Part shown: positions 32,693-43,883 of the stretch, piece after piece | Layout of the letters: every line of letters starts with the position of its first letter | How positions within the stretch are numbered: the stretch's first letter is position 1 | DNA from: Thermoleophilia bacterium SCSIO 60948 | GTDB lineage: Bacteria; Actinomycetota; Thermoleophilia; Solirubrobacterales; 70-9 | Direction of reading: 5' to 3' | Length of the DNA: 64,000 nucleotides | Assembly: GCA_021496505.1 (NCBI GenBank) | Contig: CP053031.1 | Span: forward strand, 2,038,001 to 2,102,000 | The notes under the pieces: model-generated | The model's input: the letters and a program-made list of their open reading frames with translations, nothing else | Databases searched by the model: none | What the model was told of the DNA's origin: nothing | Translations under genes and position numbers: made by a program

Positions 32693-33691
32693 TCAGGAGC
32701 GCTTGCCTCCGCCGGGTAGACGGTCCGCGAGCCGGCCGAGCGGTTCGACCGCACCGCTGAGCTGATCGGCCGAGTCGCGAAGGCTGTCGAGCGCGGGCTC
32801 GACGCGGTCGATCTGCTCCGAGATCGAGCCGACCCGCGCCTCGACGGCCTCGACGTGCTTCGGCAGCTCGGGCAGTCCCTGGGTCGAATCGGCGAGCGTC
32901 TCGAGTGCCTGGGCCAGCGCGCCGAGACGGCGCAGCGCCTGATCGAGCTCGGCGAGCCTCGAGAGCACGTCGGTCAGGTCCGTGAGCTGGGAGATCGGGC
33001 CGTCCTCGGCGACGAGACGCTCGATCGCGCCGTCGGGCGCGAGCAGGCGATCGACGGTGCCGTCGTCGGCGAGCATCCGGTTCACCGTCCCGTCGGCGGC
33101 GAGCAGCCGCTCGAGGGTCCCGTTCTCCGTCAGCATCTGCTCGAGCAGGCCGTTCTCGGCGGTGAGGCGCTCGAGCGGGCCACCCGGCTCGAGGATCCGC
33201 TCCAGGGGCCCGCCGGGCTCGAGCAGGCGATCGAGCGGTCCACTCTCCTGGGTCAGGCGGTCGAGCGGGCCCTCCTCGGCCAGCAGGCGATCGAGCGGTC
33301 CGCCCTCGAAGAGCAGGCGATCGACGATCCCGCCCTCGGCCAGCAGCTTGTCGAGCGGTCCGCCCTCGACGAGGAGTCGCTCGACGACGCCGCCCTCCGC
33401 GAGTAGCCGATCGAGCGGCCCGCCCGGCGCGAGCGCGCGGCCGAGCGGCCGATCGTCGCCGGTCAGCTCGGCGAGCTGCTCGATCCGGGCGAGCGGCCCG
33501 TCGGGGTCGGAGAGCCGGCCGAGCTGTTCGACCGGTCCGCCCTCGGCGAGAAGGATCCGAAGCCGCTCGTCGTAACCGCCGGGCCTGCGAATCGGACCGT
33601 CGGCCGACACGGCGCGGCCGGCCGCGACGATGATCTCGGCGGCGGCGAGCGCGGTGCGCGCGGGCAGCAGCGCGAAAGAGAGCAGTCCCAT
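32693..33691 (-). CDS. Decapeptide-repeat protein, unknown function
   Basis: 332-residue protein. A short hydrophobic N-terminus (GLLSFALLPARTALAAAEIIVAAG) is followed by about fifteen tandem 10-residue units with consensus GGPLDRLLAE (variants: GGVVERLLVE, NGTLERLLAA, DGTVDRLLAP) at 32975-33424, then a heptad-like Leu-rich helix (LTDVLSRLAELDQALRRLGALAQALETL, and PKHVEAVEARVGSISEQIDRVEPALDSL) typical of coiled coils. No known family is recognised. The 10-residue period would place Leu pairs on one face and G-P turns between. ATG 33689-33691 used. Confidence 0.7.
   Translation of the reverse strand: MGLLSFALLPARTALAAAEIIVAAGRAVSADGPIRRPGGYDERLRILLAEGGPVEQLGRLSDPDGPLARIEQLAELTGDDRPLGRALAPGGPLDRLLAEGGVVERLLVEGGPLDKLLAEGGIVDRLLFEGGPLDRLLAEEGPLDRLTQESGPLDRLLEPGGPLERILEPGGPLERLTAENGLLEQMLTENGTLERLLAADGTVNRMLADDGTVDRLLAPDGAIERLVAEDGPISQLTDLTDVLSRLAELDQALRRLGALAQALETLADSTQGLPELPKHVEAVEARVGSISEQIDRVEPALDSLRDSADQLSGAVEPLGRLADRLPGGGKRS
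32975..33424 (-). repeat. Coding 30-bp tandem repeat array
   Basis: Fifteen in-frame degenerate 30-bp units encode the decapeptide G-G-P-L-D-R-L-L-A-E. Codon usage within the units is degenerate, so the array has aged. It is coding repeat, not CRISPR (no spacers). Confidence 0.85.
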
Positions 33692-33761
33692 GGGGGTCAA
33701 CGTACCCGGCGAGCGCTCCCGCAGAGCCACCGCTTCTCACGGCTGGGTCTAGGTTGGCGCG

Positions 33762-34001
33762 ATGAGCGACATCCCACCCCAGCTGCCGTCGCGGATCGCG
33801 GCGCTCGAGAAGAAGGTCAGCGACCTCTACCGCCGCCTCGGTGTGCCCGAGCCGTCGCTGGCCGAGCTCGCCGGCGAGATCCCCGCCGAGGTCGTCGAGC
33901 TCGCGCAGGCCGGCAATCAGATCGGGGCCATCAAGCTGCTCCACGAGATGACCGGGTGCGGACTCGCCGAGGCGCGCGAGAAGGTCCAGACACTCACCTA
34001 G
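33762..34001 (+). CDS. Short ribosomal L7/L12 C-terminal-domain-like protein
   Basis: 79 residues: an N-terminal helix (LPSRIAALEKKVSDLYRRLG) and a C-terminal segment (EIPAEVVELAQAGNQIGAIKLLHEMTGCGLAEAREKVQTL) that matches the last helices of the L7/L12 C-terminal domain (IKxxREITGxxLKEAKxxV). The L7/L12 N-terminal dimerisation domain is missing, so it is not the ribosomal stalk protein. A factor-binding or ribosome-related role is only inferred. ATG 33762; divergent from the decapeptide-repeat gene. Confidence 0.75.
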   Translation: MSDIPPQLPSRIAALEKKVSDLYRRLGVPEPSLAELAGEIPAEVVELAQAGNQIGAIKLLHEMTGCGLAEAREKVQTLT

Positions 34002-34436: not shown

Positions 34437-34480
34437 AGCGCCCCCACTTGGATTCGAACCAAGGACCTGCGGATTAGAAG
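34437..34480 (-). repeat. attL: 44-bp copy of the tRNA-Arg 3' part
   Basis: Identical to 43808-43851. It covers the tRNA 3' half from just past the discriminator base up to the anticodon loop. Sequence beyond (34481 onward) is unrelated to the tRNA, so this is a partial copy left by site-specific integration. Confidence 0.93.
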
Positions 34481-34527
34481 GGGCTCAGCTGCTGTGCTGC
34501 TACGTCGTGCCCCGCTCTAGCAAGCCG

Positions 34528-34607
34528 CGCTCGGTGCTCTCATTTGCGCTCGGTTTCGCTCGGTTCGGCACCCAATTCGGCATCCGGTGACACCCGGTTT
34601 GACATCC
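34528..34607. repeat. Short direct repeats near attL (possible integrase arm sites)
   Basis: CGCTCGGT occurs at 34528, 34547 and 34557. A second family G[GA]CA[CT]CC occurs at 34567, 34579, 34589 and 34601 with 10-12 base spacing. They lie in the 157-base non-coding stretch between attL and the first gene. Arm-type integrase or regulator binding is inferred. Confidence 0.4.
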
Positions 34608-34637
34608 GTATCCGCGCACGCCCTTACCTTGAGACGT

Positions 34638-35306
34638 ATGACTGAACAACTCACCAGCAAGATCTCGCAGCTTGACGCTCGTTTGGCCGCTCTTCCAATC
34701 GAGATGGATACGCACCGTGAGGCCTTTCTAGACGCCACAGCCCAGCACCTCGCGTGGTACTACAGCGATGCCGCGCGTGTCGCCGCCGAGAATCAAGAGG
34801 TCGAGACTCTGCGAATGATGAAAGACACCGGGAAGCTGAGTGAGCTCAAGGCAGAGGTTGCCGCCCTCGCGGAACGCGCAGGCCCCCTTACCAGACGAAA
34901 GCTGGTCGACGAACAAACCGACCATTTCTGGCCGCAGGATTGGACGCCAGACGAGATCGAGCGACTCGATCACACAGCGCGGCATCGCTTCGAGCGTGAT
35001 TGGGATCCGAGCCACATCGCTGGGGACAACGCGCAGGCAAAAGCCCTCGTCAGTCCGCTCCAGGAGCTGTTTGGACTAGTTGGAGAGGTTCTGGCGTCGT
35101 ACGGCCTTACAGCTCCGAATGTCGACAGACTCCGGTCCGGCAGCTACGCGGCATGGCGTGAATTGGAGTGGAGCGAGGGAATGGTCCAGTCGATGGTTGA
35201 GTACCGAGCCGTTTTCCATCAGTACCTCGCCGACATGAATGAGCGGGGGCGGTTGAGCGAGGACCTGCGACGTCAGCAGGCAACGAGCCTGTGGGACGAG
35301 GCGTAG
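34638..35306 (+). CDS. Element-borne hypothetical protein
   Basis: 222-residue protein, the only rightward gene of the element. It is largely helical and charged (QLTSKISQLDARLAALPIEMDTHREAFLD, and ELKAEVAALAERAGPLTRRKL). No family is recognised. Base composition is less GC-biased than chromosomal neighbours, in line with recent acquisition. ATG 34638 is preceded by a TTGACA at 34599-34604. It ends in a 34-base convergent overlap with integrase. Position at the edge of the element suggests cargo. Confidence 0.65.
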   Translation: MTEQLTSKISQLDARLAALPIEMDTHREAFLDATAQHLAWYYSDAARVAAENQEVETLRMMKDTGKLSELKAEVAALAERAGPLTRRKLVDEQTDHFWPQDWTPDEIERLDHTARHRFERDWDPSHIAGDNAQAKALVSPLQELFGLVGEVLASYGLTAPNVDRLRSGSYAAWRELEWSEGMVQSMVEYRAVFHQYLADMNERGRLSEDLRRQQATSLWDEA

Positions 35307-36460
35307 TTGCCCCCATCGACCAGATGCGTGAGCGCGTCGGCAGCTGCTCGCTTCGGGATGTGGTGCGCGTAGATCATCGTCGTCGTCACGCTGCTGTGGC
35401 CCATATACGCCTGCACGTCAACGAGCGGCCACACCTGCGCAGCTAGCGTCCCAAACGTGTGGCGCAGGTCGTGAAAGCGCAGCGGCCGGTCCCCTGTGCG
35501 CTTGTGGCCAAGCCCGGCCCGGTCGAGCGCTGAGTAGAAGCGCATCCGCATTTCCTTGTCATCCAGGTGCCGCCCGGTCGGGCTGGCGAATACGAGGTCC
35601 GTGCTCGCGGTGAAGTGCTGCCGGCGGCTGAGGCGGTCGAGCTCCACGGCGGCTTGATCGATCAGTGGCACGGACCGGACCTTGCCGCTCTTCGGCTCGT
35701 GGACCCTGCGCTCCTTGGAGTAGCTGCTTCGCACGAACACGGTCCGCCCGGCAAAGTCGATGTCGCCCCAGCGCAGCGCTCGTAGCTCCCCCATGCGCAG
35801 CCCCGTAAAGGCCGCGACGACCCACAGCGCTGCATCCTGCTCGTTGTCAGCTACGCGGGATACCTGGGCTACCTCCTCGGGACTTAGGACGTTGAAATCC
35901 CCGCTGCGCTTGACCGTCACCCGCTCGGCGTCCTCGGCCGGGTTCGTTTTGATCCACCCCTTGCGCTTTGCGCGCTTGAGGATCGAGTAGTTGACGACCA
36001 GCACCTTCTGAACGGAGCGTCGGCTGATCGCCCCCTCCGCGAGCATGCGCTCCCGAGCTTCATCGATCCGCTGTGTGGTGATCGAGCTCAGTGGCGTGTC
36101 TGCCCCGAACGCCGGATAGAGGCGGCGCTCGATGCAGTACCGGTAATCCCGCACGGTCGAAGCCGAGCGGTCGCGGTCCTGCTCCGTGTACCGCAAGAAC
36201 TCTTCGCAGGCATGCGCGTACGTGCGCGACGCGCCCACAGGGTCCGGCCCAGCAAGCTCACCCCTTCGCGCGTCCGTCAGCAGCGCTTGGAGCGCAGCCT
36301 CGGCGGTCCGCTTCGTGAAGTAGCCCTCGGGGGGTCTCCCCCGCTCCGTCCACACCGGGCCGAGGCGCCGGTTCATCCGGCGACCCTCGACCCTCAGCTG
36401 GGCGTACCACTGGTCCCCGCGCTTGCGCTCGCGGATGTAGACGCGGCCGCTAGCTCGCAT
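35273..36460 (-). CDS. int: Tyrosine recombinase / integrase
   Basis: 395-residue phage-type integrase. N-terminal arm-binding and core-binding SAM-like region (VYIRERKRGDQWYAQLRVEGRR, then TYAHACEEFLRYTEQDRDRSASTVRDYRYCIE) and C-terminal catalytic domain with AFTGLRMGELRALRW (first Arg), KSGKVRSVPL (beta-hairpin Lys), FHDLRHTFG (His-x2-Arg), and YMGHSSVTTTMIYAHH (His and nucleophile Tyr). It catalyses integration and excision at the 44-bp tRNA-Arg core. ATG 36458-36460 overlaps the Xis-like gene by 11 bases. The in-frame stretch up to 36628 is not part of the gene. Confidence 0.95.
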   Translation of the reverse strand: MRASGRVYIRERKRGDQWYAQLRVEGRRMNRRLGPVWTERGRPPEGYFTKRTAEAALQALLTDARRGELAGPDPVGASRTYAHACEEFLRYTEQDRDRSASTVRDYRYCIERRLYPAFGADTPLSSITTQRIDEARERMLAEGAISRRSVQKVLVVNYSILKRAKRKGWIKTNPAEDAERVTVKRSGDFNVLSPEEVAQVSRVADNEQDAALWVVAAFTGLRMGELRALRWGDIDFAGRTVFVRSSYSKERRVHEPKSGKVRSVPLIDQAAVELDRLSRRQHFTASTDLVFASPTGRHLDDKEMRMRFYSALDRAGLGHKRTGDRPLRFHDLRHTFGTLAAQVWPLVDVQAYMGHSSVTTTMIYAHHIPKRAAADALTHLVDGGNYASSHRLVAC

Positions 36461-36662
36461 CGGCGGCCTCCTTTTCCTGCTGCGCCTTGAAGCGCTTGGC
36501 CAGCTGCCCGGCCTTCTGGGGCGTGAACGAGTAGCGGCCGTTGCGCTGGCCCCGCTCCCCCAGGCCGAGCCCTTCGGAGCGCAGCCACTTGCGCAGCGCC
36601 TTGGGATCGACTTCCAACCGCTCGGCAAGCTGCTTTGCGGTGACTTCCTGCTTCTCGCTCAT
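36450..36662 (-). CDS. Xis-like small DNA-binding protein
   Basis: 70 residues with a helix-turn-helix-like arrangement (EVTAKQLAERLEVDPKALRKWLRSEGLGL) and a basic C-terminus (KAGQLAKRFKAQQEKEA). Directly upstream of, and overlapping, integrase, which is the classic recombination directionality factor position. ATG 36660-36662 with AAGGAGGG as ribosome binding site. Excision role is inferred from position. Confidence 0.75.
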   Translation of the reverse strand: MSEKQEVTAKQLAERLEVDPKALRKWLRSEGLGLGERGQRNGRYSFTPQKAGQLAKRFKAQQEKEAADAS

Positions 36663-36686
36663 GGCGAGCCCTCCTTGAGGTAGTTA

Positions 36687-36700
36687 GTGCGAATCCGCAC
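36687..36700 (-). promoter_or_regulatory. Dyad upstream of the xis-int pair
   Basis: GTGCG-AATC-CGCAC, a 5-bp-arm inverted repeat 25 bases before the Xis-like start, within the 110-base gap that separates it from the upstream gene. Possible operator for a separate xis-int promoter. Confidence 0.35.
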
Positions 36701-36772
36701 CAAGCTATGAAAGTCGGCCTCGGACCCAGTCCGCCCTCGTCGGGAGAACCCCGGCGCTGGCTTGCGCGCCCC

Positions 36773-37453
36773 CTATGCCGCTCGGCGTCGGCGCGACTTC
36801 GGAGGGCTCGGCGGCCGAATCGAGCTCTCGCCGTCGAGCAGCCCGGCCGGCACTGGCGGGACTAGCTCCTCGAGACCCCCGAACGGGTTGGTCGGCAGCT
36901 GGGACCAATCCATGCCCTCGGCCTTCTCCAAAAGCGGACGCCACAGGCCGCGAAGCTCGACGTACTCCTCGCTGGCCTGGCGTGCCTTGTCCATCACAGC
37001 GCGGTAGCGCGCAACGAAGTCGCGGCCGAGCGCGGCGATATCGACGGCGAGGTCATCGAACCTGCGGCGGATGAATGCGTCGAGCTCGTTCTCGGCGGTG
37101 ACCAACGCCTCGCGGGCACCTGTGAGCTGACCCTCGATCTTCGGGTTGACGAGTTCGACGCTCGACCCGTCCACCCCACCAGACCGTGGATTGAAGACGA
37201 CTTGGGGCGCAACTTCCTGCTGCGCCTTCGCCACAGCTGCCTGAAGCTCGGCTTCCTCGTTGGGATCGTGCTCGCGCTCGCCCGTCTCGACCTGCCGGTA
37301 GTAGTCCTGGAGCGGCGAGACGGCGCGATCAAGGTCACGCTTGCTCGCGCGCTGCTCGGTCGTCAGCTGCTCCATGCGAGCCTTAGCTAGCTGCACCGCC
37401 TCCTGATGTTCGGCCAACTCATCGAGCGCGGGTGTGCTCGGCTTAGTCATCAT
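36773..37453 (-). CDS. Element-borne coiled-coil hypothetical protein
   Basis: 226 residues, strongly helical: LAEHQEAVQLAKARMEQLTTEQRASKRDLDRAVSPLQDYY, then VAKAQQEVAPQ, and a central long helix ending in EEYVELRGLWRPLLEKAEG; the C-terminus is Pro/Arg-rich (PPSPPKSRRRRAA). No family is recognised. Overlaps the preceding small gene by 11 bases, so cotranscribed with terminase. It could be a packaging accessory or scaffold-like protein; this is speculation from position. Confidence 0.65.
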   Translation of the reverse strand: MMTKPSTPALDELAEHQEAVQLAKARMEQLTTEQRASKRDLDRAVSPLQDYYRQVETGEREHDPNEEAELQAAVAKAQQEVAPQVVFNPRSGGVDGSSVELVNPKIEGQLTGAREALVTAENELDAFIRRRFDDLAVDIAALGRDFVARYRAVMDKARQASEEYVELRGLWRPLLEKAEGMDWSQLPTNPFGGLEELVPPVPAGLLDGESSIRPPSPPKSRRRRAA

Positions 37454-37637
37454 CGTCCTCCGGTGTCAGGTCCGCCGGGACTTCTTCGAGCCGCTTGACG
37501 TTGCGTAGGCGGTCGAGCCCGTACGGCTCGTCTTCGATCTGCCGACGCATCTCGTCGTCGGCCTCGTGGATTGCTCTGAGCTCGGCGAGCTCACCCTCTA
37601 AGCGCGCGATGCGCTTTCCGATTCGGTCCCTGGCCAC
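37443..37637 (-). CDS. Small element-borne coiled-coil protein
   Basis: 64 residues, one long charged helix (RIGKRIARLEGELAELRAIHEADDEMRRQIEDE) and an acidic end (LTPEDDDD). GTG 37635-37637 follows GGGAGGACTGACT. Starts 2 bases after the terminase stop and overlaps the next gene. No family is recognised. Confidence 0.65.
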   Translation of the reverse strand: MARDRIGKRIARLEGELAELRAIHEADDEMRRQIEDEPYGLDRLRNVKRLEEVPADLTPEDDDD

Positions 37638-37639
37638 AG

Positions 37640-39241
37640 TCAGTCCTCCCGTGGGTCGATTGCCGTCCCGACGCGCTCTCGCAAGTGCTTGAGGCGCGGG
37701 CTTTCTGGTGGTGGGCCGGTTTGACCCGGCGAAGTTGTCTCCGGCCCGCTCACGCTCTGCCAGACAGGCAGGCGCTCGGCAGACACGGGCTCGTCCTCCC
37801 CGGCGATCAGCTGGCCGAGGACGGTCTGCCAGCGACCCCGCTTGTCGCGGTGGGGCACCGTGGCGAGCATCAGCGCGTCGGCTAGGTCGTCGTGGCCGAC
37901 CGATGCCTCGATCCGCTCGGTGCCGCTGGCCTGAAGGTCGACGCGCAGTAGCAAGAGCTCGCGGCGCAGGTCCTCGGCCGAAGCCGGGAGCAGCAGACGC
38001 CCACGGTCGATGGCGAGGCGCAGCGCTGTGTAGCCGGTGGCCTTGAGCTCGGCGGTGGTGTGGATCGAGACCTTGCGAGTGACGAACGGGCTCGGCCCCG
38101 GCTGAATCTCGCGGCGCAGCTGGTCGCGCTCGATCTGCTTGCGGAGCTTCCCGAACTCCCAGTCCTGCACATCGACCAGCCGAAGCCGGCGAGCCGGTCC
38201 CCCTCCCTCCGGAGCCGGTCGCTGCCTCAAAAGGCGGGTGAGCTCTTGGGCACAGGGGGCGCCGACCCCGTTCGTCTCCATCGCGATCGTGTCGAAGTGA
38301 GCGGGCGAGGCGGCTATCGAGCCGTAGACGTCGTGCAGCGGATGACCGGACGGCCAGCGGTAGGTACAGCGCACCGCGAACGTCCGCGTCCCGGCAAGCC
38401 GTCCGATGGCTGCGACGGCGCTGTGGTCGTGCGAGACGCCCCAGTCGACTCCGGCAAGGACTCGGGCCGGGCCGCGCATCTCAGCGAGCCGGTCCGGCAG
38501 GTAGTCACGGGTCGCGGCGTCGAGGCTTGCTCGGGTGAAGAGCGAGTCAGCCCCGGAGGCGAATACGCCCTCGTACTCGGCAGCGAAGCGCGTTTCGGTC
38601 ATCGACTCCCGCGCGGCTTCGATCACGGACGGGCTGATCCACTTGCAGTCAGTCAGCGCCCACCTGTGAAGCGCGATGTTCTGCGACCCGGCTTCGGCGC
38701 GACGGACGTGGTCGAAGAACGCCCCCGATGCCACTGTGGCCGAGCTCGCCAGCACCACGCGTGCATCCGGCCTGGCAGCGGTCGTCGGGATAGCCGCACC
38801 CAGCAGCAGGTCGTCGGACACGAGCGCTGCCTCGTCCACCAGGAGAAGGTCCACCGTCCAGCCTCTGATCTGGCGCTCGGACGCGGGCACGGAGCGGATT
38901 ACCGACCCATTGCTGAGAGCCACCAGGGCAGCGCCCTCGTCGGTGACGGAACCCTCCAGGTACGGCGACCCTGTGACCAACCGGCGCACTTCGCTGAGCA
39001 GGCGTCGGGCGGCGTCCTCCCCAGCGCTGACGATGAGCACGTGCTGCCGGGGCTTGCGAAAGGCCCAGTAGGCGGCGGCCACCGCGAGGCTGCGCGACTT
39101 CCCCGACTGGCGTGGCGCGACGATCGCCGTCGTCCGGGTGCGCAGCGTGAGGGCTCGTGCTTGCCACAGGGTCATGGGCATGCGGGCGAGCTCGTCAGCG
39201 AAGACGGCGATGTTGCGCCGGGCGCGGTCGAAGTCAGGCAT
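37640..39241 (-). CDS. terL: Phage-type terminase large subunit
   Basis: 533-residue DNA-packaging motor. ATPase domain: Walker A IVAPRQSGKSRS (about 41-52), Walker B DLLLVDEAAL with Glu137 as catalytic, and the coupling motif ASSATVASGAFF. Nuclease domain: AGVDWGVSHDHSAVA (first Asp) and GHDDLADALMLA near residue 455 (last Asp pair). Both domains appear complete, so it should be an active enzyme. It overlaps the small subunit by 8 bases. No portal protein, protease or capsid gene follows, unlike a prophage packaging module. Confidence 0.93.
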   Translation of the reverse strand: MPDFDRARRNIAVFADELARMPMTLWQARALTLRTRTTAIVAPRQSGKSRSLAVAAAYWAFRKPRQHVLIVSAGEDAARRLLSEVRRLVTGSPYLEGSVTDEGAALVALSNGSVIRSVPASERQIRGWTVDLLLVDEAALVSDDLLLGAAIPTTAARPDARVVLASSATVASGAFFDHVRRAEAGSQNIALHRWALTDCKWISPSVIEAARESMTETRFAAEYEGVFASGADSLFTRASLDAATRDYLPDRLAEMRGPARVLAGVDWGVSHDHSAVAAIGRLAGTRTFAVRCTYRWPSGHPLHDVYGSIAASPAHFDTIAMETNGVGAPCAQELTRLLRQRPAPEGGGPARRLRLVDVQDWEFGKLRKQIERDQLRREIQPGPSPFVTRKVSIHTTAELKATGYTALRLAIDRGRLLLPASAEDLRRELLLLRVDLQASGTERIEASVGHDDLADALMLATVPHRDKRGRWQTVLGQLIAGEDEPVSAERLPVWQSVSGPETTSPGQTGPPPESPRLKHLRERVGTAIDPRED

Positions 39242-39767
39242 CGCTGGCCTCCGCCTCGATGGCGTCCTCGCGGCGGGCGGCCTGGTCGCGCTGCTCCCAC
39301 TCGCGGGCTAGGTCCATCGAGCGCGCCTGGTCGAGCCCGAGCCGTGCGCGGCTGGTCGGGGTCATGCCGAGCTTGTCGAGCAGCCCCTCTGCCCGGCCGA
39401 CGAGCCTGTCCTCGAGCGCGATGAGGCGCAGGGGGTCCACGGACGCTGTGGTGCGTGGGGCTCGCTTGCGCTGCCGCTTCTTCTGCGGGTCGGTCGAGCG
39501 GTAGCGGCGTGCGGTCAAGCCGTTCTGGTCGATGTAGGCGCGGAGGTCGTCGAGCCGAACCAGCGTCTGCGCCAGCAGCGACACGGCTGCGCCATCAGCG
39601 GCGGGCAGTCCCCCATCCGCATCCCGCACGGGGGCATCGGCTGCCAACGCGTCGAAGATCTCCCTGGCTTTGGCGTCCTCGCGCTCCGGCGCGACCTTCG
39701 CGTACGCCCCGTGAGAGACGGCGAGACGGTTGCCACGAGGTGCGGGCTCCGGCGTCCTTTCAGCCAC
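39234..39767 (-). CDS. terS: Probable terminase small subunit
   Basis: 177 residues. The N-terminus (GNRLAVSHGAYAKV) and the helical C-terminus (VDPLRLIALEDRLVGRAEGLLDKLGMTPTSRARLG) fit the P27-like small terminase pattern, where a C-terminal helical hairpin carries LGLTPxxR. It would recognise the packaging site and deliver DNA to TerL. GTG 39765-39767 has AAGGGGG at good spacing; the in-frame GTG at 39812 is an alternative. Its stop overlaps terL. Confidence 0.8.
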   Translation of the reverse strand: MAERTPEPAPRGNRLAVSHGAYAKVAPEREDAKAREIFDALAADAPVRDADGGLPAADGAAVSLLAQTLVRLDDLRAYIDQNGLTARRYRSTDPQKKRQRKRAPRTTASVDPLRLIALEDRLVGRAEGLLDKLGMTPTSRARLGLDQARSMDLAREWEQRDQAARREDAIEAEASDA

Positions 39768-39841
39768 CCGGCACCCCCTTTTCGCACCCGGCTCGACACC
39801 TAGCGCCGACACAGCGCAGCGTCAAGCGGTTTACCTGCGGA

Positions 39842-40144
39842 CTATTCATCCGCCTGCACCTCCTCCCAACGCTCGATGGCGTCGGCTCGGTAACGGAAGT
39901 AGCGGCCGATCCGCACGACCGGGATCGAGCCCTGTCGCGTCAGCCGGTAGACGTGGGTCTTCGGGACCTGCCAGCGCTCGGCAAGCTGCTCGGCCGTCAT
40001 CAGCTGGGATGCGCGCAGCGGCTCGGCGCCTTGCGCGGCGTCGTGCGGGCCGTGGACCGGCTCAGATGGGGTAGCTCGCCCGGGAGCGCTTTCGCGGACG
40101 CCTCCGGCCCGCATACGCCCTCGGGCATTACGGGGGTCGCTCAT
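39842..40144 (-). CDS. HTH (excisionase/MerR-type) DNA-binding protein
   Basis: 100 residues. The C-terminal half is a helix_turn_helix_17 domain: LMTAEQLAERWQVPKTHVYRLTRQGSIPVVRIGRYFRYRADAIERW. The N-terminal half is disordered and basic. Such proteins act as Xis, Rep accessory, or regulators of element genes. ATG 40142-40144 follows GAGGGGGCAACGC and overlaps the upstream ORF stop in ATGA. Confidence 0.82.
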   Translation of the reverse strand: MSDPRNARGRMRAGGVRESAPGRATPSEPVHGPHDAAQGAEPLRASQLMTAEQLAERWQVPKTHVYRLTRQGSIPVVRIGRYFRYRADAIERWEEVQADE

Positions 40145-40458
40145 GCGTTGCCCCCTCGTTGGCGGCGGGCACGGACGGGGCGCGAGGCCAGCTCCACAGC
40201 CTCGGCTACGCGCGATGCGCGTGCGCTCGTGCGCGGGAAGCAGCTTGGCCCCCTGGCTCCCTGGGGTAGCTCGGGCACCAAAGGGGTTGGCCTCCTGGGC
40301 CCAGGGTGCCAGCCAGGGGGCCAAGCTTGGCCTTCTGCTTTTATCGCTCTACTAAGCCAACCTTGAACCCTGGGGGCCAGAAGGCCAAAGGGGCTTGGGG
40401 AACCCTGACGCCCACCCCTGGCCCCCTGGGTTGGCAGGGTGGGTCGGAAGGCGGTCAC
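40141..40458 (-). CDS. Pro/Arg-rich ORF over inverted repeats (uncertain)
   Basis: 105-residue reading frame. It overlaps the RepA-like gene (GTGA at 40455-40458) and the HTH gene (ATGA at 40141-40144), exactly continuing the operon's 4-base overlap pattern, which favours real translation. Its composition is biased by repeats (PPGWHPGPRRPTPLVPELPQG). No family. The same DNA contains a cluster of inverted repeats at 40243-40388, so it may primarily be a cis-acting site. Confidence 0.4.
   Translation of the reverse strand: MTAFRPTLPTQGARGGRQGSPSPFGLLAPRVQGWLSRAIKAEGQAWPPGWHPGPRRPTPLVPELPQGARGPSCFPRTSARASRVAEAVELASRPVRARRQRGGNA
40243..40388. repeat. Cluster of inverted repeats within the replication region
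   Basis: A perfect 16-bp inverted repeat (40243-40258 and 40311-40326) with the palindrome CCTGGGCCCAGG (40294-40305) between the arms. A second 11-bp inverted pair occupies 40327-40337 and 40378-40388. All contain a shared TTGGCC core. Location next to the RepA-like gene suggests an origin, packaging or partition site; untested. Confidence 0.6.
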
Positions 40459-41588
40459 TTTGACCCCTCCTTCTCAAGAGTCCACACCCAGCGGTTCTTC
40501 CCGTCGGTCCATTGCTGCTCGGTGCGCACGGCAAGATCGGCTTTGGCTCGCTTGAGCGTGCGCGGCTTGATGTCGCGCTCTTTGGCCTTTGCCTGGATGT
40601 CGAACGCGAGGGCCGAGCCGTCAGCGAGCTCTTCCTCGATGAAGCGCTTTGCCTCGGCTCGGTCGCTGCGCTCGTCCGCGTCCTGATTGCTCGCCCCCAC
40701 CAGCTCGGTCGCGCTATGCGAGCTCGTCTTGCCGATCCGGATGTACGGCTGGCTGGTCGGCCCGTCGCTGGTGCGGACACGCTTCGTCTCGATGGAGCAG
40801 CTGCGCGACTGCGCGAGCTTCCCCACGTTCGACTTGGCCTGCGCGAGCACCCGGTCCGATGCGAGGCCGTCCGGGTCTGAGGGGTCCGACGCGAAGACCA
40901 ACACGGAGCGCGGGGCAGCCGTGAAAGCCACAGAGCCGGAAATGCGCGTGAGGGCATCCGCTGTCGCCGTCGACTTGTTGAGATGCATGATCGACAGCAG
41001 CGCGAAGCCGTGCTCCTCGGCTGCGTCGGTCAGGGGGCTCAGCGCTCGTCGCGTGTCGTGATCGCGGTGAGAGTCGAAGCCCTTGCCCCCCTCGCCCCCG
41101 AGGAAGGCCATGCCGGGATCGAGCACGACGAGTGCGACGTCTTGACGCTCGGCTTGAGCGGCGAGGTCCCGCACATCTTGCGGCAGCCGGATCGGCCCGG
41201 AGTCCCCCTTGTCGATGACGCTCGGAAAGTGGACTCGCCGCAGGTCGGCCCCGGCTGCTTTGAGGCGCGGGACCAGCGTCTGGGCAAGAGCGTCCTCAGC
41301 TGAGGCGTAGATGACCGAGCGCGGTGTGCCCTTGAGCTCGCCGGGCAGCTTGCCCCGCGTCACCAAACTCGAGAGGCGGACGGCAAGAGTGCTCTTCCCG
41401 AGCCCCTGCCGACCAGCGAGCACGGTCACCATTCCGAGCGGGACATAGTTGCTCCACAGCCACTTCGTTCGCTCGGGCTCGATGTCGGCCGCTGAGACGA
41501 ATTCGACGGTACGCCGCTCGAAATCGAGGTCCGGGTCCCAATCGCGGTTCGTGTCGAAGCTGCCCTTGAGGTCCGGTCGGTCGCTCAC
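40455..41588 (-). CDS. RepA-like AAA ATPase (AAA_25 family)
   Basis: 377-residue RecA-fold ATPase of the RepA/DnaB-like helicase group. Walker A VLAGRQGLGKSTLAV (about 57-71), Walker B DVALVVLDPGMAFLGG, then HGFALLSIMHLNKS sensor strand and a DNA-facing region with ALTRISGSVAFTAAPRSVLVFA. The C-terminal part (DERSDRAEAKRFIEEELADGS, KERDIKPRTLKRAKADL) is a winged-helix-like segment seen in mobile-element ATPases. It likely drives replication of the excised element. GTG 41588. Confidence 0.9.
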   Translation of the reverse strand: MSDRPDLKGSFDTNRDWDPDLDFERRTVEFVSAADIEPERTKWLWSNYVPLGMVTVLAGRQGLGKSTLAVRLSSLVTRGKLPGELKGTPRSVIYASAEDALAQTLVPRLKAAGADLRRVHFPSVIDKGDSGPIRLPQDVRDLAAQAERQDVALVVLDPGMAFLGGEGGKGFDSHRDHDTRRALSPLTDAAEEHGFALLSIMHLNKSTATADALTRISGSVAFTAAPRSVLVFASDPSDPDGLASDRVLAQAKSNVGKLAQSRSCSIETKRVRTSDGPTSQPYIRIGKTSSHSATELVGASNQDADERSDRAEAKRFIEEELADGSALAFDIQAKAKERDIKPRTLKRAKADLAVRTEQQWTDGKNRWVWTLEKEGSK

Positions 41589-42067
41589 GGCGCACCGCCG
41601 AAATCGATGGCAAGGAAGTCAGCGCAGCTGATCAGTCTCCGAGCAGAGACGGACGCCGCGCGCCGAGAAGCGACGCCCGCCCTGCCGGAGTGCTCGGCGC
41701 GGAAAGGAGACGCGCCATCCACCGCCACGGCAGAGGAACCCGTGACGGAAGCTTTGTGATGCCGACGCGAGGCCGGCGCAGAAGAGTGAGGTTCGCCAGG
41801 GTCGTCGCTAGACGACGAGCGGGAGCGGGACCGAACGACGGGGCGACCCTCACGCGATCTGGGTGCTGTGATCCGAGCTTCGACCCTGGCGGTCCGACGA
41901 GCGGCCCGGAGGCGTCGCTGTGCCCGGTCAAGGGATCGGAGCGCTGCTCGGACGCCGCGGGGCGTCTGTGCGCGCTCTAGGCGGCGCTGCGCCTGCCTTA
42001 CCGACTGCTTCCGCGCGCTGAGCTCGGACGGAGCCTGGCCGAAGTCGATAAGCACCATGCCGCTCAC
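41585..42067 (-). CDS. Arg/Ser-rich element protein with repeated DFG-x-AP motif
   Basis: 160-residue reading frame between the XRE repressor and the RepA-like gene, overlapping both in GTGA junctions. It has a basic helical N-terminal half (RQAQRRLERAQTPRGVRAALRSLDRAQRRLRAARR) and a Ser/Arg-rich middle. LIDFGQAP near the N-terminus recurs as AIDFGGAP at the very end, possibly an internal duplication. No family is recognised. Translation is supported by the overlaps; function unknown. Confidence 0.55.
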   Translation of the reverse strand: MSGMVLIDFGQAPSELSARKQSVRQAQRRLERAQTPRGVRAALRSLDRAQRRLRAARRTARVEARITAPRSREGRPVVRSRSRSSSSDDPGEPHSSAPASRRHHKASVTGSSAVAVDGASPFRAEHSGRAGVASRRAASVSARRLISCADFLAIDFGGAP

Positions 42068-42312
42068 CGCGCGGCCCGTTTCTCACGGAAGTTGTCGTTC
42101 CACCGCAGGACGATTTCGCGAGGCGTTGGCACGGCTTCATCGCGGAACACCTCGTCTACCGGCACGTCGAGCGCGGAAGCGATTGCCTGGGCGGTCTTGA
42201 GCGAAGGCTGCTTGCGCCCCCGCTCCACATTGTTGAGAAAGACCTTGCTTACGCCCGTCTCATCCGAAAGGTCCCCGAGCGTCAGGCCTTTCGCTTCGCG
42301 CCAGAAGCGCAT
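42064..42312 (-). CDS. XRE-family (Cro/CI-type) transcriptional repressor
   Basis: 82 residues: RFWREAKGLTLGDLSDETGVSKVFLNNVERGRKQPSLKTAQAIASALDVPVDEVF is a canonical HTH_3 domain. It is the first gene of the long leftward operon and its own promoter (42345-42373) carries a dyad centred on the -10, so autoregulation is likely. It would serve as the master repressor (Stl-like) of the element. ATG 42310-42312. Confidence 0.9.
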   Translation of the reverse strand: MRFWREAKGLTLGDLSDETGVSKVFLNNVERGRKQPSLKTAQAIASALDVPVDEVFRDEAVPTPREIVLRWNDNFREKRAAR

Positions 42313-42330
42313 CCAGTTGTCGGTGAAACG

Positions 42331-42373
42331 AGCGATAGAACAGCATTATAGCCCATCGCTTTGAAGATGTAAA
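42331..42373 (-). promoter_or_regulatory. Strong promoter with operator-like dyad, element operon
   Basis: On the minus strand, TTTACA (42368-42373), a 17-base spacer and TATAAT (42345-42350) form a near-consensus sigma-70 promoter, exceptional in this GC-rich DNA. The dyad AGCGAT (42331-42336) / ATCGCT (42355-42360) is centred on the -10. The first gene is the XRE repressor at 42312. Confidence 0.88.
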
Positions 42374-42381
42374 CCATGACG

Positions 42382-43677
42382 TTACGCAGCGCCGCGCTCG
42401 ATATCGGCCTCGGAGAAACCGCTCTGACGGAGCAAATCCGTTCGATCCTGGTAGGTCACCCAGATCAGGAAGCCCTTGTCTACAACGCTCAAGCGTCGGG
42501 CCGACTGGTGGTAATCGAGGATCAGGGGTTGGATCCCATGATGGAGCTGCAGCGAGGCTGCGGACTTCAAAGCCTGAGTGACATTTCCGGGATTCAACTC
42601 CTCGCCGCGCGGGTGAACACGTTGCAGAGTGCGATTGATCTCGGTGAGCCCTACCCCGGTCTCGAGTTGCTCCGGGGTTGCAGTAAGCATCGGATAGAGC
42701 AGGTACCGATACATCTCTAGCTCGGTATGCATGAACCCGGATGCAAAGCGCGACAAGAAGGCGTTGTACCGAGCCGACTGTTCATCGACTACCCCGCGAA
42801 TCTCTGAAGCGGCATCGACCTCTTCGCCTACCGATGCTTCCGCTTCTCTCGTCGAAACAATCCCCGCCTCGTCGCATACTCGGAAGCACGTGTCTTGCAC
42901 GACGGAGACGCTCTCAAAGCACCCGTCGATGAGGGCAGTCGCAAAATCCGGATCGAACCGAACATTCAGCAGCTTGGCGCCTTCATCCATCACGCTCCTG
43001 AGCTCCTCAGGCGCCCAAGCGTCGGCGTCTACGGCGATAACACGCCCAGCTAGATCGCCATTCAGTTCGATCAATCGGTTCTCATCAAGCCAAACGCCGA
43101 CAACGATGAAGGAAAACTTGGAGTTTTCGTGGAACGCCTTCAGTGAAACCGCGAAGTCATGCTGCGCGTCTTCACCGAGGTAATGGAAGTCCTCAAGAAC
43201 GAGGAAGTCAGGCGCGTCGGCTTCCTGTAGAGCCGCGATCACATCGTTGACATCGAGTGGGTCTAGCTCAAGAGGCTCCGAGGTGACTTGATCGCTTTCC
43301 TCCGAAGCTTTTTCGCCGCTGAGGGTGCTGCCGAGAGATGCACCGGGGACGCGGAGCCGGCCGGTGAGCTTCGCGGCCAGCTTGTTGGTTCCTGTTTCAG
43401 TTCGTGTCGAGCTCTGCTTTATCTCGTAACCGGCGGCCTTGAGCACCGCGGAGTGGATTTCCGCCAGACCCCACTTGTTTGAGCAGGTGATGACGAGGTG
43501 GTCGTCCTCGGTCAGGTTGTACTTACGCAGACAGGTCTTGCCTTGCTTCGAGCTCCCGAAGACGGCCACGTGCTTATCTCGCGTAAGACTCTCGATGAAG
43601 GCCCCATCCACCGAAGGGCGGGGAACGTAATTTGCCGGGATATCCCTCGAGATCCCGAAGACATCGGCCAAACGCAT
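42382..43677 (-). CDS. Stand-alone AAA/STAND-like ATPase, element cargo
   Basis: 431-residue ATPase of no recognised specific family. Walker A VFGSSKQGKTCLR (40-52), Walker B FLVLEDFHYLGED (158-170), a sensor-like strand SKFSFIVVGVWLDEN, and a C-terminal helical part ending SEADIERGAA. No nuclease, TIR, protease or transmembrane effector domain can be seen, so the effector could be intrinsic or elsewhere. Codon use is visibly less GC-rich than the chromosome. It is transcribed from its own promoter (43694-43722). It occupies the usual cargo slot next to the attachment site; a defense or interference role is an inference. ATG 43675-43677; GTG at 43684-43686 would be near-leaderless. Confidence 0.75.
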   Translation of the reverse strand: MRLADVFGISRDIPANYVPRPSVDGAFIESLTRDKHVAVFGSSKQGKTCLRKYNLTEDDHLVITCSNKWGLAEIHSAVLKAAGYEIKQSSTRTETGTNKLAAKLTGRLRVPGASLGSTLSGEKASEESDQVTSEPLELDPLDVNDVIAALQEADAPDFLVLEDFHYLGEDAQHDFAVSLKAFHENSKFSFIVVGVWLDENRLIELNGDLAGRVIAVDADAWAPEELRSVMDEGAKLLNVRFDPDFATALIDGCFESVSVVQDTCFRVCDEAGIVSTREAEASVGEEVDAASEIRGVVDEQSARYNAFLSRFASGFMHTELEMYRYLLYPMLTATPEQLETGVGLTEINRTLQRVHPRGEELNPGNVTQALKSAASLQLHHGIQPLILDYHQSARRLSVVDKGFLIWVTYQDRTDLLRQSGFSEADIERGAA

Positions 43678-43693
43678 GGTGGTCACAGGGCTG

Positions 43694-43722
43694 AACCTAG
43701 AAACCCAGCCGCGGACCTGCAA
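43694..43722 (-). promoter_or_regulatory. Promoter of the cargo ATPase gene
   Basis: TTGCAG (43717-43722), 17-base spacer and TAGGTT (43694-43699) on the minus strand. The predicted start of transcription falls within a few bases of the GTG at 43686, so the mRNA may be leaderless. Confidence 0.6.
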
Positions 43723-43749
43723 GGCGCAAGCGGCACCCGATAGTCACCC

Positions 43750-43763
43750 GTTGCTACTGCAAC
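43750..43763. promoter_or_regulatory. Short dyad upstream of the cargo ATPase
   Basis: GTTGC-TACT-GCAAC, a perfect 5-bp-arm inverted repeat about 30 bases upstream of the -35 element. Possible operator. Confidence 0.35.
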
Positions 43764-43807
43764 TACCGTGCCCGGCGCTGCATTCCGCTTGCTAGCGCGA
43801 TAAGCGA

Positions 43808-43851
43808 AGCGCCCCCACTTGGATTCGAACCAAGGACCTGCGGATTAGAAG
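43808..43851 (-). repeat. attR: 44-bp repeat inside tRNA-Arg
   Basis: Identical to 34437-34480. It ends at the 5' side of the anticodon loop of the tRNA, the commonest crossover site used by tyrosine integrases in tRNA genes. Confidence 0.93.
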
Positions 43852-43883
43852 TCCGCCGCTCTATCCAGCTGAGCTACAGGGGC
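43810..43883 (-). tRNA. tRNA-Arg (TCT anticodon)
   Basis: Full cloverleaf on the minus strand. The anticodon loop CTTCTAA gives TCT (reads AGA/AGG). T arm CTTGG-TTCGAAT-CCAAG. Acceptor stem GCCCCTG pairs with TGGGGGC using two wobble pairs. Its 3' part is supplied by the integrated element's repeat, leaving the gene intact. Confidence 0.96.

What the first reader, a model, noticed from the sequence alone, without database searches (positions are those of the whole stretch)
32693..33691. Decapeptide-repeat protein with consensus GGPLDRLLAE
About fifteen degenerate 10-residue repeats between a hydrophobic N-terminus and coiled-coil tail match no family that I recognise. A regular spacing of short amphipathic helices broken by Gly-Pro turns could build a novel solenoid.
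Basis: partly seen in the sequence, partly recalled or inferred. Interest (0 to 1): 0.6.

Follow-up and report, generated by a model that had tools for sequence, protein, structure and literature searches.

The report
Decapeptide short-helix repeat protein (Rv0756c family)
A real, conserved bacterial protein built mostly of strictly 10-residue repeats, each predicted to be a very short helix plus a turn; it is the relative of an unstudied tuberculosis-bacterium gene beside phoP, belongs to no named family tested, and probably acts as a membrane-attached rod or scaffold.

Summary
Window 32693-33691 (-) encodes a 332-aa protein with 14 in-register decapeptides (consensus GGPLDRLLAE, residues 90-229). 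They lie between a conserved hydrophobic N-terminal helix and a long helical tail. Lag-10 self-identity is 84, against 16 (maximum 32) in 10,000 shuffles. The protein is not an orphan. Collinear homologues occur in 145/201 sampled genomes (23/31 genera) of the Mycobacterium family and in 15/232 of the window's own order. The mycobacterial orthologues lie divergent from phoP, which makes them Rv0756c. That gene is only listed, never studied, in the papers found. Spacing is exactly 10 across the family, copy number is about 8-23, and mycobacterial dN/dS is about 0.1. No family in Pfam, NCBIfam or PHROGs, no PDB sequence and no Foldseek target matches convincingly. AlphaFold2 gives, independently for the window protein and a mycobacterial orthologue, an array of 6-residue helices joined by 4-residue turns, at pLDDT about 70 in the repeats. 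The solenoid idea is therefore plausible locally but unproven globally. The best reading is a cytoplasmic, peripherally membrane-bound rod or scaffold of variable length with a C-terminal helical oligomerisation tail. A PHA-granule (phasin) role is disfavoured, because most carriers tested in the order lack PhaC.

The parts
32693..33691 (-). CDS of the decapeptide-repeat protein, 332 aa plus stop
   Evidence: homologues share start, frame and end; NG dN/dS 0.46 against L071 and 0.08-0.11 among mycobacterial orthologues
33699..33704 (-). possible -10 element TACGTT (TANNNT type) 7 nt before the ATG; no clear Shine-Dalgarno, so the transcript may be leaderless (inference)
   Evidence: sequence, read by eye
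33611..33688 (-). N-terminal hydrophobic/amphipathic helix (residues 2-27) with conserved P10-x-R12 and A16-x-A18; candidate membrane anchor
   Evidence: conservation; helix, low pLDDT; KD19 1.66, max muH 0.43
33425..33544 (-). degenerate N-terminal repeats and conserved cap motif DDRPLGRALAP (residues 50-89)
33005..33424 (-). 14 decapeptide repeats GGPLDRLLAE (residues 90-229)
   Evidence: AF2 6-residue helices at 92-97, 102-107, 112-117, 122-127 etc.
32720..33004 (-). long helical tail (residues 230-324); its start keeps the decad hydrophobic register without the Gly turns
   Evidence: weak coiled-coil hits only
32714..32752 (-). conserved C-terminal motif AVEPLGRLADRLP (residues 314-326) followed by a short basic end
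   Evidence: also in the shorter relatives L004, L005, L006, L008

Best explanation
This is a conserved actinobacterial structural protein, the window organism's member of the Rv0756c family. The N-terminal helix carries a conserved P-x-R and A-x-A/S and has no signal-peptide layout; it most likely attaches the protein to the inner face of the cytoplasmic membrane (inferred). Each decapeptide is one short amphipathic helix (P3-L-D-R-L-L-A9). Gly or Pro ends it, with D5/R6/E10 on the polar side and L4/L7/L8 forming a single hydrophobic stripe (predicted). Repeats of exactly constant length stack those stripes into a narrow helical rod or solenoid whose length depends on copy number (inferred). 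The rod then passes into a long helix with the same register, which oligomerises through its nonpolar stripe and ends in the conserved PLGRLADRLP-basic motif (inferred). The likely role is a membrane-attached spacer or scaffold rather than an enzyme.
For: Over 58 loci, 658 of 814 successive repeat spacings are exactly 10, none is 8 or 11, and shuffled sequence gives 1.2% at 10. Strict length with variable copy number (8-23) is what stacked repeats need and what a disordered linker would not need. AF2 gives the same 6-residue helix plus 4-residue turn array for two proteins that are about 44% identical. The order of parts (N-helix, DDxPLGRAL cap, repeats, tail, VxPLxxxAxRxP end) is collinear from Mycobacterium to the window. 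Purifying selection is strong in mycobacteria, dN/dS 0.08-0.11. No catalytic domain is found. The N-helix is moderately hydrophobic, KD19 about 1.0-1.7 over the family, with conserved Arg and often Asp/Glu inside, which fits peripheral insertion better than a classical transmembrane helix.
Against: AF2 confidence is low overall (pLDDT 59 and 55; pTM 0.38 and 0.23), so stacking is not shown. The N-helix itself has pLDDT around 30-40. There is no localisation, interaction or mutant datum, and gene neighbours are not conserved outside the phoP context. The family is patchy in the window's own order (15/232) and was found in no other sampled genome of its own family.
Confidence: 0.42

Rival explanations
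1. Lipid-surface protein that works like perilipin/apolipoprotein or a phasin: the short amphipathic helices do not stack on each other but lie flat on a membrane, a triacylglycerol droplet or a PHA granule, with Gly-Gly hinges between them.
For: Each decad makes one clean nonpolar face (consensus). Isolated short helices with GG hinges would explain the moderate AF2 confidence. All 24 genomes tested, carriers included, have WS/DGAT genes, so substrate lipid bodies are possible.
Against: PHA granules are disfavoured: of 9 other carrier genomes tested only 1 has PhaC_N, while 3 non-carriers do. WS/DGAT is universal in the sample and so says nothing. Perilipin and apolipoprotein repeats are 11-mers; the lag-11 signal here is at background (20, against 84 at lag 10). 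The rigid 10-residue spacing is more than a flat array needs.
Confidence: 0.25
2. Low-complexity, mostly disordered spacer between an anchor helix and a coiled-coil, with repeat length fixed by duplication history only.
For: pLDDT is about 70 at best in the repeats; Gly, Pro and charged residues are abundant; copy number varies.
Against: Position-specific conservation (G2, L4, D5, R6, L7) in 507 repeats, no 8- or 11-residue units, low third-codon identity with conserved protein and dN/dS of about 0.1 point to a folded constraint.
Confidence: 0.2
3. Accessory of the PhoPR system: the protein works with the PhoR sensor, since it is encoded back to back with phoP in mycobacteria.
For: Divergent phoP/phoR neighbour in all four Mycobacterium-group loci inspected in full and, by neighbour clustering, in about 20 loci. 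There is a PhoP ChIP peak between Rv0756c and phoP (PMC4038636).
Against: Rv0756c expression hardly changes (-1.24) in the same table. Gene order differs in other genera, and in the window and its order the family gene is not beside such a pair.
Confidence: 0.07

Closest known systems
Mycobacterium tuberculosis Rv0756c and its orthologues (unnamed 'unknown protein' beside phoP)
   Same: Same order of parts, 34-41% identity of the best segment, the same decapeptides, cap and C-terminal motif
   Different: The mycobacterial versions lie beside phoPR and have 9-19 repeats; the window gene lies between a methyltransferase gene and a small divergent ORF. No function is known for either. The name Rv0756c rests on synteny (adjacency in PMC4038636), not on a search of the M. 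tuberculosis genome.
Alpha-solenoid repeats (HEAT, ARM, TPR, SEL1)
   Same: Tandem helix-turn units with a conserved hydrophobic stripe
   Different: One 6-7-residue helix per 10 residues instead of two or more helices per about 30-47 residues; no profile match and no Foldseek match
Perilipin/synuclein/apolipoprotein 11-mer repeats
   Same: Short amphipathic helical repeats without catalytic residues
   Different: Period 10 with an invariant Gly, not 11 without breaks
Decapeptide DDGLVGGLLG protein of Sulfitobacter plasmids (WP_243263354.1, two genes from a TolC-family gene)
   Same: 10-residue period with [DG]G-L/V at the turn
   Different: Lacks the D/E-R/K pair, the N-helix and the C-terminal motif; 980-residue putatively secreted protein; weak match, E 2e-8 over 37%; probably convergent
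Mycobacterial HBHA / Wag31-type membrane or lipid-body coiled-coil proteins
   Same: General layout of membrane- or lipid-binding N-part with long coiled-coil (from the abstracts and own knowledge)
   Different: No DivIVA or HBHA profile match; decapeptides absent there (own knowledge)

Membership tests
Rv0756c family (phoP-adjacent mycobacterial protein) | Collinear N-helix (P-x-R), DDxPLGRALA cap, decapeptides, VxPLxxxAxRxP end | tested here: met
Rv0756c family (phoP-adjacent mycobacterial protein) | Gene divergent from phoP | tested here: not met
   Met in mycobacteria but not in the window, whose neighbours are a methyltransferase gene and a 79-aa ORF; synteny marks the mycobacterial branch only and does not define the protein family
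Alpha-solenoid (HEAT/TPR/ARM) | Profile match to a helical repeat family | tested here: not met
Alpha-solenoid (HEAT/TPR/ARM) | Stacked helices forming a continuous hydrophobic core | tested here: inconclusive
   local helices predicted, packing not confident
Pentapeptide-repeat proteins | Five-residue period and beta-helix | tested here: not met
   lag-5 identity 10 against 84 at lag 10; helices predicted; no Pfam hit
Perilipin/apolipoprotein-type amphipathic repeats | 11-residue period | tested here: not met
   lag-11 identity 20, background
Perilipin/apolipoprotein-type amphipathic repeats | Binds lipid droplets or membranes | not testable with these tools
   needs experiment
Phasin (PHA granule) | Phasin profile | tested here: not met
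   no Pfam hit
Phasin (PHA granule) | Co-occurs with PHA synthase | tested here: not met
   own genome has PhaC but 8 of 9 other carriers tested lack it
Phage protein | Match in phage collections | tested here: not met
   no phage record; only a weak PHROGs hit, E 1.2e-4; the gene lies outside the integrated element at 34437-43851

The most novel reading that the evidence does not exclude
The decapeptides form a new class of helical solenoid with one 6-7-residue helix per 10-residue repeat, a shorter unit than in the alpha-solenoids known to me. It would be used as a ruler-like, membrane-attached rod in mycobacteria and Solirubrobacterales-like actinobacteria.
Probability: 0.3. Interest if true: 0.68.

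Novelty: new variant of a known kind. Interest (0 to 1): 0.5.

Why it matters
An undescribed repeat architecture is widespread among the sampled mycobacteria and relatives (145 of 201 genomes), under strong selection, in a gene beside one of the best-studied regulators of M. tuberculosis, yet it has no family model and no study in the papers found. If the short-helix solenoid is real it adds a minimal helical repeat, useful for design, and points to an overlooked envelope or membrane scaffold in mycobacteria.

Tried and rejected
Pfam, NCBIfam, PHROGs and PDB sequence searches gave only weak coiled-coil or chance hits: DUF7310 at 22 bits against a cut-off of 40; AAC(3) at 21 against 270. Foldseek against PDB and BFVD gave nothing with E <= 0.001. 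A PHA-granule role was tested by PhaC co-occurrence and disfavoured; WS/DGAT and MCE were universal or nearly so and not informative. A conserved operon was sought in 58 loci: only the phoP context recurs widely, plus a second shared context in another subset. Period-3 (30-residue) superrepeats show weakly in Mycobacterium (identity 0.405 at lag 3 against 0.32-0.36 at other lags) but not in the window, so three helices per turn is not claimed. Literature searches for Rv0756c gave lists only; M. smegmatis locus tags guessed from memory gave nothing. Streptomyces plasmid hit H5 lies on an annotated protein with an unrelated low-complexity repeat (GHGDDGWPQK), so the match looks like a composition or other-frame artefact.

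Full report
OBSERVATION. The ORF at 32693-33691 (-) encodes 332 aa from an ATG at 33691. Residues 90-229 are fourteen exactly in-register decapeptides; position 2 is Gly in all, and positions 4-7 follow [LVI]-[DEN]-[RKQ]-[LMI]. Lag-10 identity over residues 81-235 is 84, against a shuffled mean of 16 and maximum of 32 in 10,000; lags 5, 9 and 11 stay at 10, 21 and 20. Between repeats, codon position 3 is the least conserved (0.49, against 0.67 and 0.76), so the repeats are old and conserved at protein level. Several overlapping ORFs in other frames are taken to be shadows: this is the frame for which homologues were found.

FAMILY. The search for related loci brought 16 homologous loci, all from Mycobacterium or Mycolicibacterium records. 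Their genes are divergent from a response regulator which, in M. asiaticum, matches M. tuberculosis PhoP structures (3r0j, E 4e-145). A histidine kinase and, in most, a HIT protein follow. By this synteny the M. tuberculosis orthologue is Rv0756c; the number is from memory, supported by the Rv0756c/Rv0757 phoP row of PMC4038636. That paper lists it beside a PhoP ChIP peak, with nearly unchanged expression (-1.24). No function was found in papers. A profile finds the family in 145 of 201 genomes and 23 of 31 genera of the Mycobacterium family, in 15 of 232 genomes of the window's order and in 14 of 396 across the phylum. In the window's own family only the window genome has it among those sampled. 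A tree places the window protein near the base of, or beside, the other members from its order, apart from the Mycobacteriales members (weak internal support).

ANATOMY. All members aligned share a hydrophobic N-terminal helix with P-x-R/K and A/S-rich turn, the cap DDxPLGRAL, about 8-23 decapeptides, a helical tail and a VxPLxxxAxRxP-like end. Among 814 successive Gly-motif spacings in 58 loci, 658 are exactly 10 and none is 8 or 11; shuffled sequence gives 1.2% at 10. One member (L080) carries a 6-residue truncated unit (read by eye). Pairwise dN/dS is 0.08-0.11 in mycobacteria and 0.17-0.46 in the window's order (approximate, high GC). The N-helix has KD19 of about 1.0-1.7 and charged residues inside: peripheral insertion is likelier than a classical transmembrane helix, and there is no signal-peptide layout (inference).

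STRUCTURE. AlphaFold2 on the window protein (16-row alignment) gives helices 92-97, 102-107, 112-117 and so on, a 2-27 helix, and long helices 232-269 and 276-324. Mean pLDDT is 59; the repeat blocks are mostly 65-71, falling to about 48-57 around residues 181-210. The M. asiaticum orthologue, folded separately, gives the same 6+4 array (pLDDT 55, repeats 57-74). The secondary structure is therefore consistent, but the global packing is not determined. Foldseek finds nothing significant. In the consensus, Gly2 fits an N-cap, Pro3 an N1 position, Asp/Glu5 an N3 position, Arg6-Glu10 an i,i+4 salt bridge and Gly1 a C-prime position (established helix-capping rules, applied by inference).

MECHANISM. 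The best-supported reading is a membrane-attached rod or scaffold: anchor helix, stacked short helices of fixed unit and variable number, and an oligomerising tail. Shown here: the repeats, their strict length, conservation, selection, and order of parts. Predicted: helices and turns. Inferred: stacking, membrane binding, oligomerisation, scaffold role. The main rival is a lipid-surface protein lying flat. Its PHA-granule form is disfavoured because eight of nine other carriers tested lack PhaC. The TAG form cannot be tested, since WS/DGAT is universal in the sample.

KNOWN OR NEW. The protein belongs to the family of an annotated but unstudied gene; the repeat has no model found in Pfam, NCBIfam or PHROGs and no PDB relative. 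It behaves like a short helical repeat protein but is not a member of HEAT/TPR/ARM, pentapeptide, 11-mer or phasin families by the features tested. I rate it a new variant of a known kind (helical tandem-repeat protein) with moderate interest.

Noticed in passing
window 34437-43851: Integrated element of about 9.4 kb: a 44-bp perfect direct repeat (34437-34480 and 43808-43851) overlapping tRNA-Arg (43809-43883, -), with a tyrosine integrase (35273-36628, -) and a terminase-like gene (37640-39241, -); it ends about 750 bp from the decapeptide gene.
   Followed up: partly
window 33762-34001 (+): Divergent 79-aa ORF whose C-terminal half weakly resembles the ribosomal L7/L12 C-terminal domain (Pfam E 0.0018, below cut-off), 70 bp from the repeat gene's start.
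   Followed up: no
L004, L005, L006, L008: Shorter proteins in the same order carry a helical tail and a similar xGPLSRLAxRxPG ending but no decapeptides; possible sister family.
   Followed up: partly
L073 8514-9773 (-), L074 6810-7982 (-), L085 7244-8416 (+): In these members the tail itself has expanded into a second decapeptide array (xLGDRLxPLE) in the same 10-residue period but without the Gly turn.
   Followed up: no
L111 (G811:C15, about 237.7-242.8 kb) and G838:C164: Two copies of the family gene about 4 kb apart in each of these two same-genus genomes.
   Followed up: no
L086 2098-5040 (+): Sulfitobacter plasmid protein of 980 residues with many DDGLVGGLLG decapeptides, two genes upstream of a TolC-family gene; no Pfam match.
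   Followed up: partly
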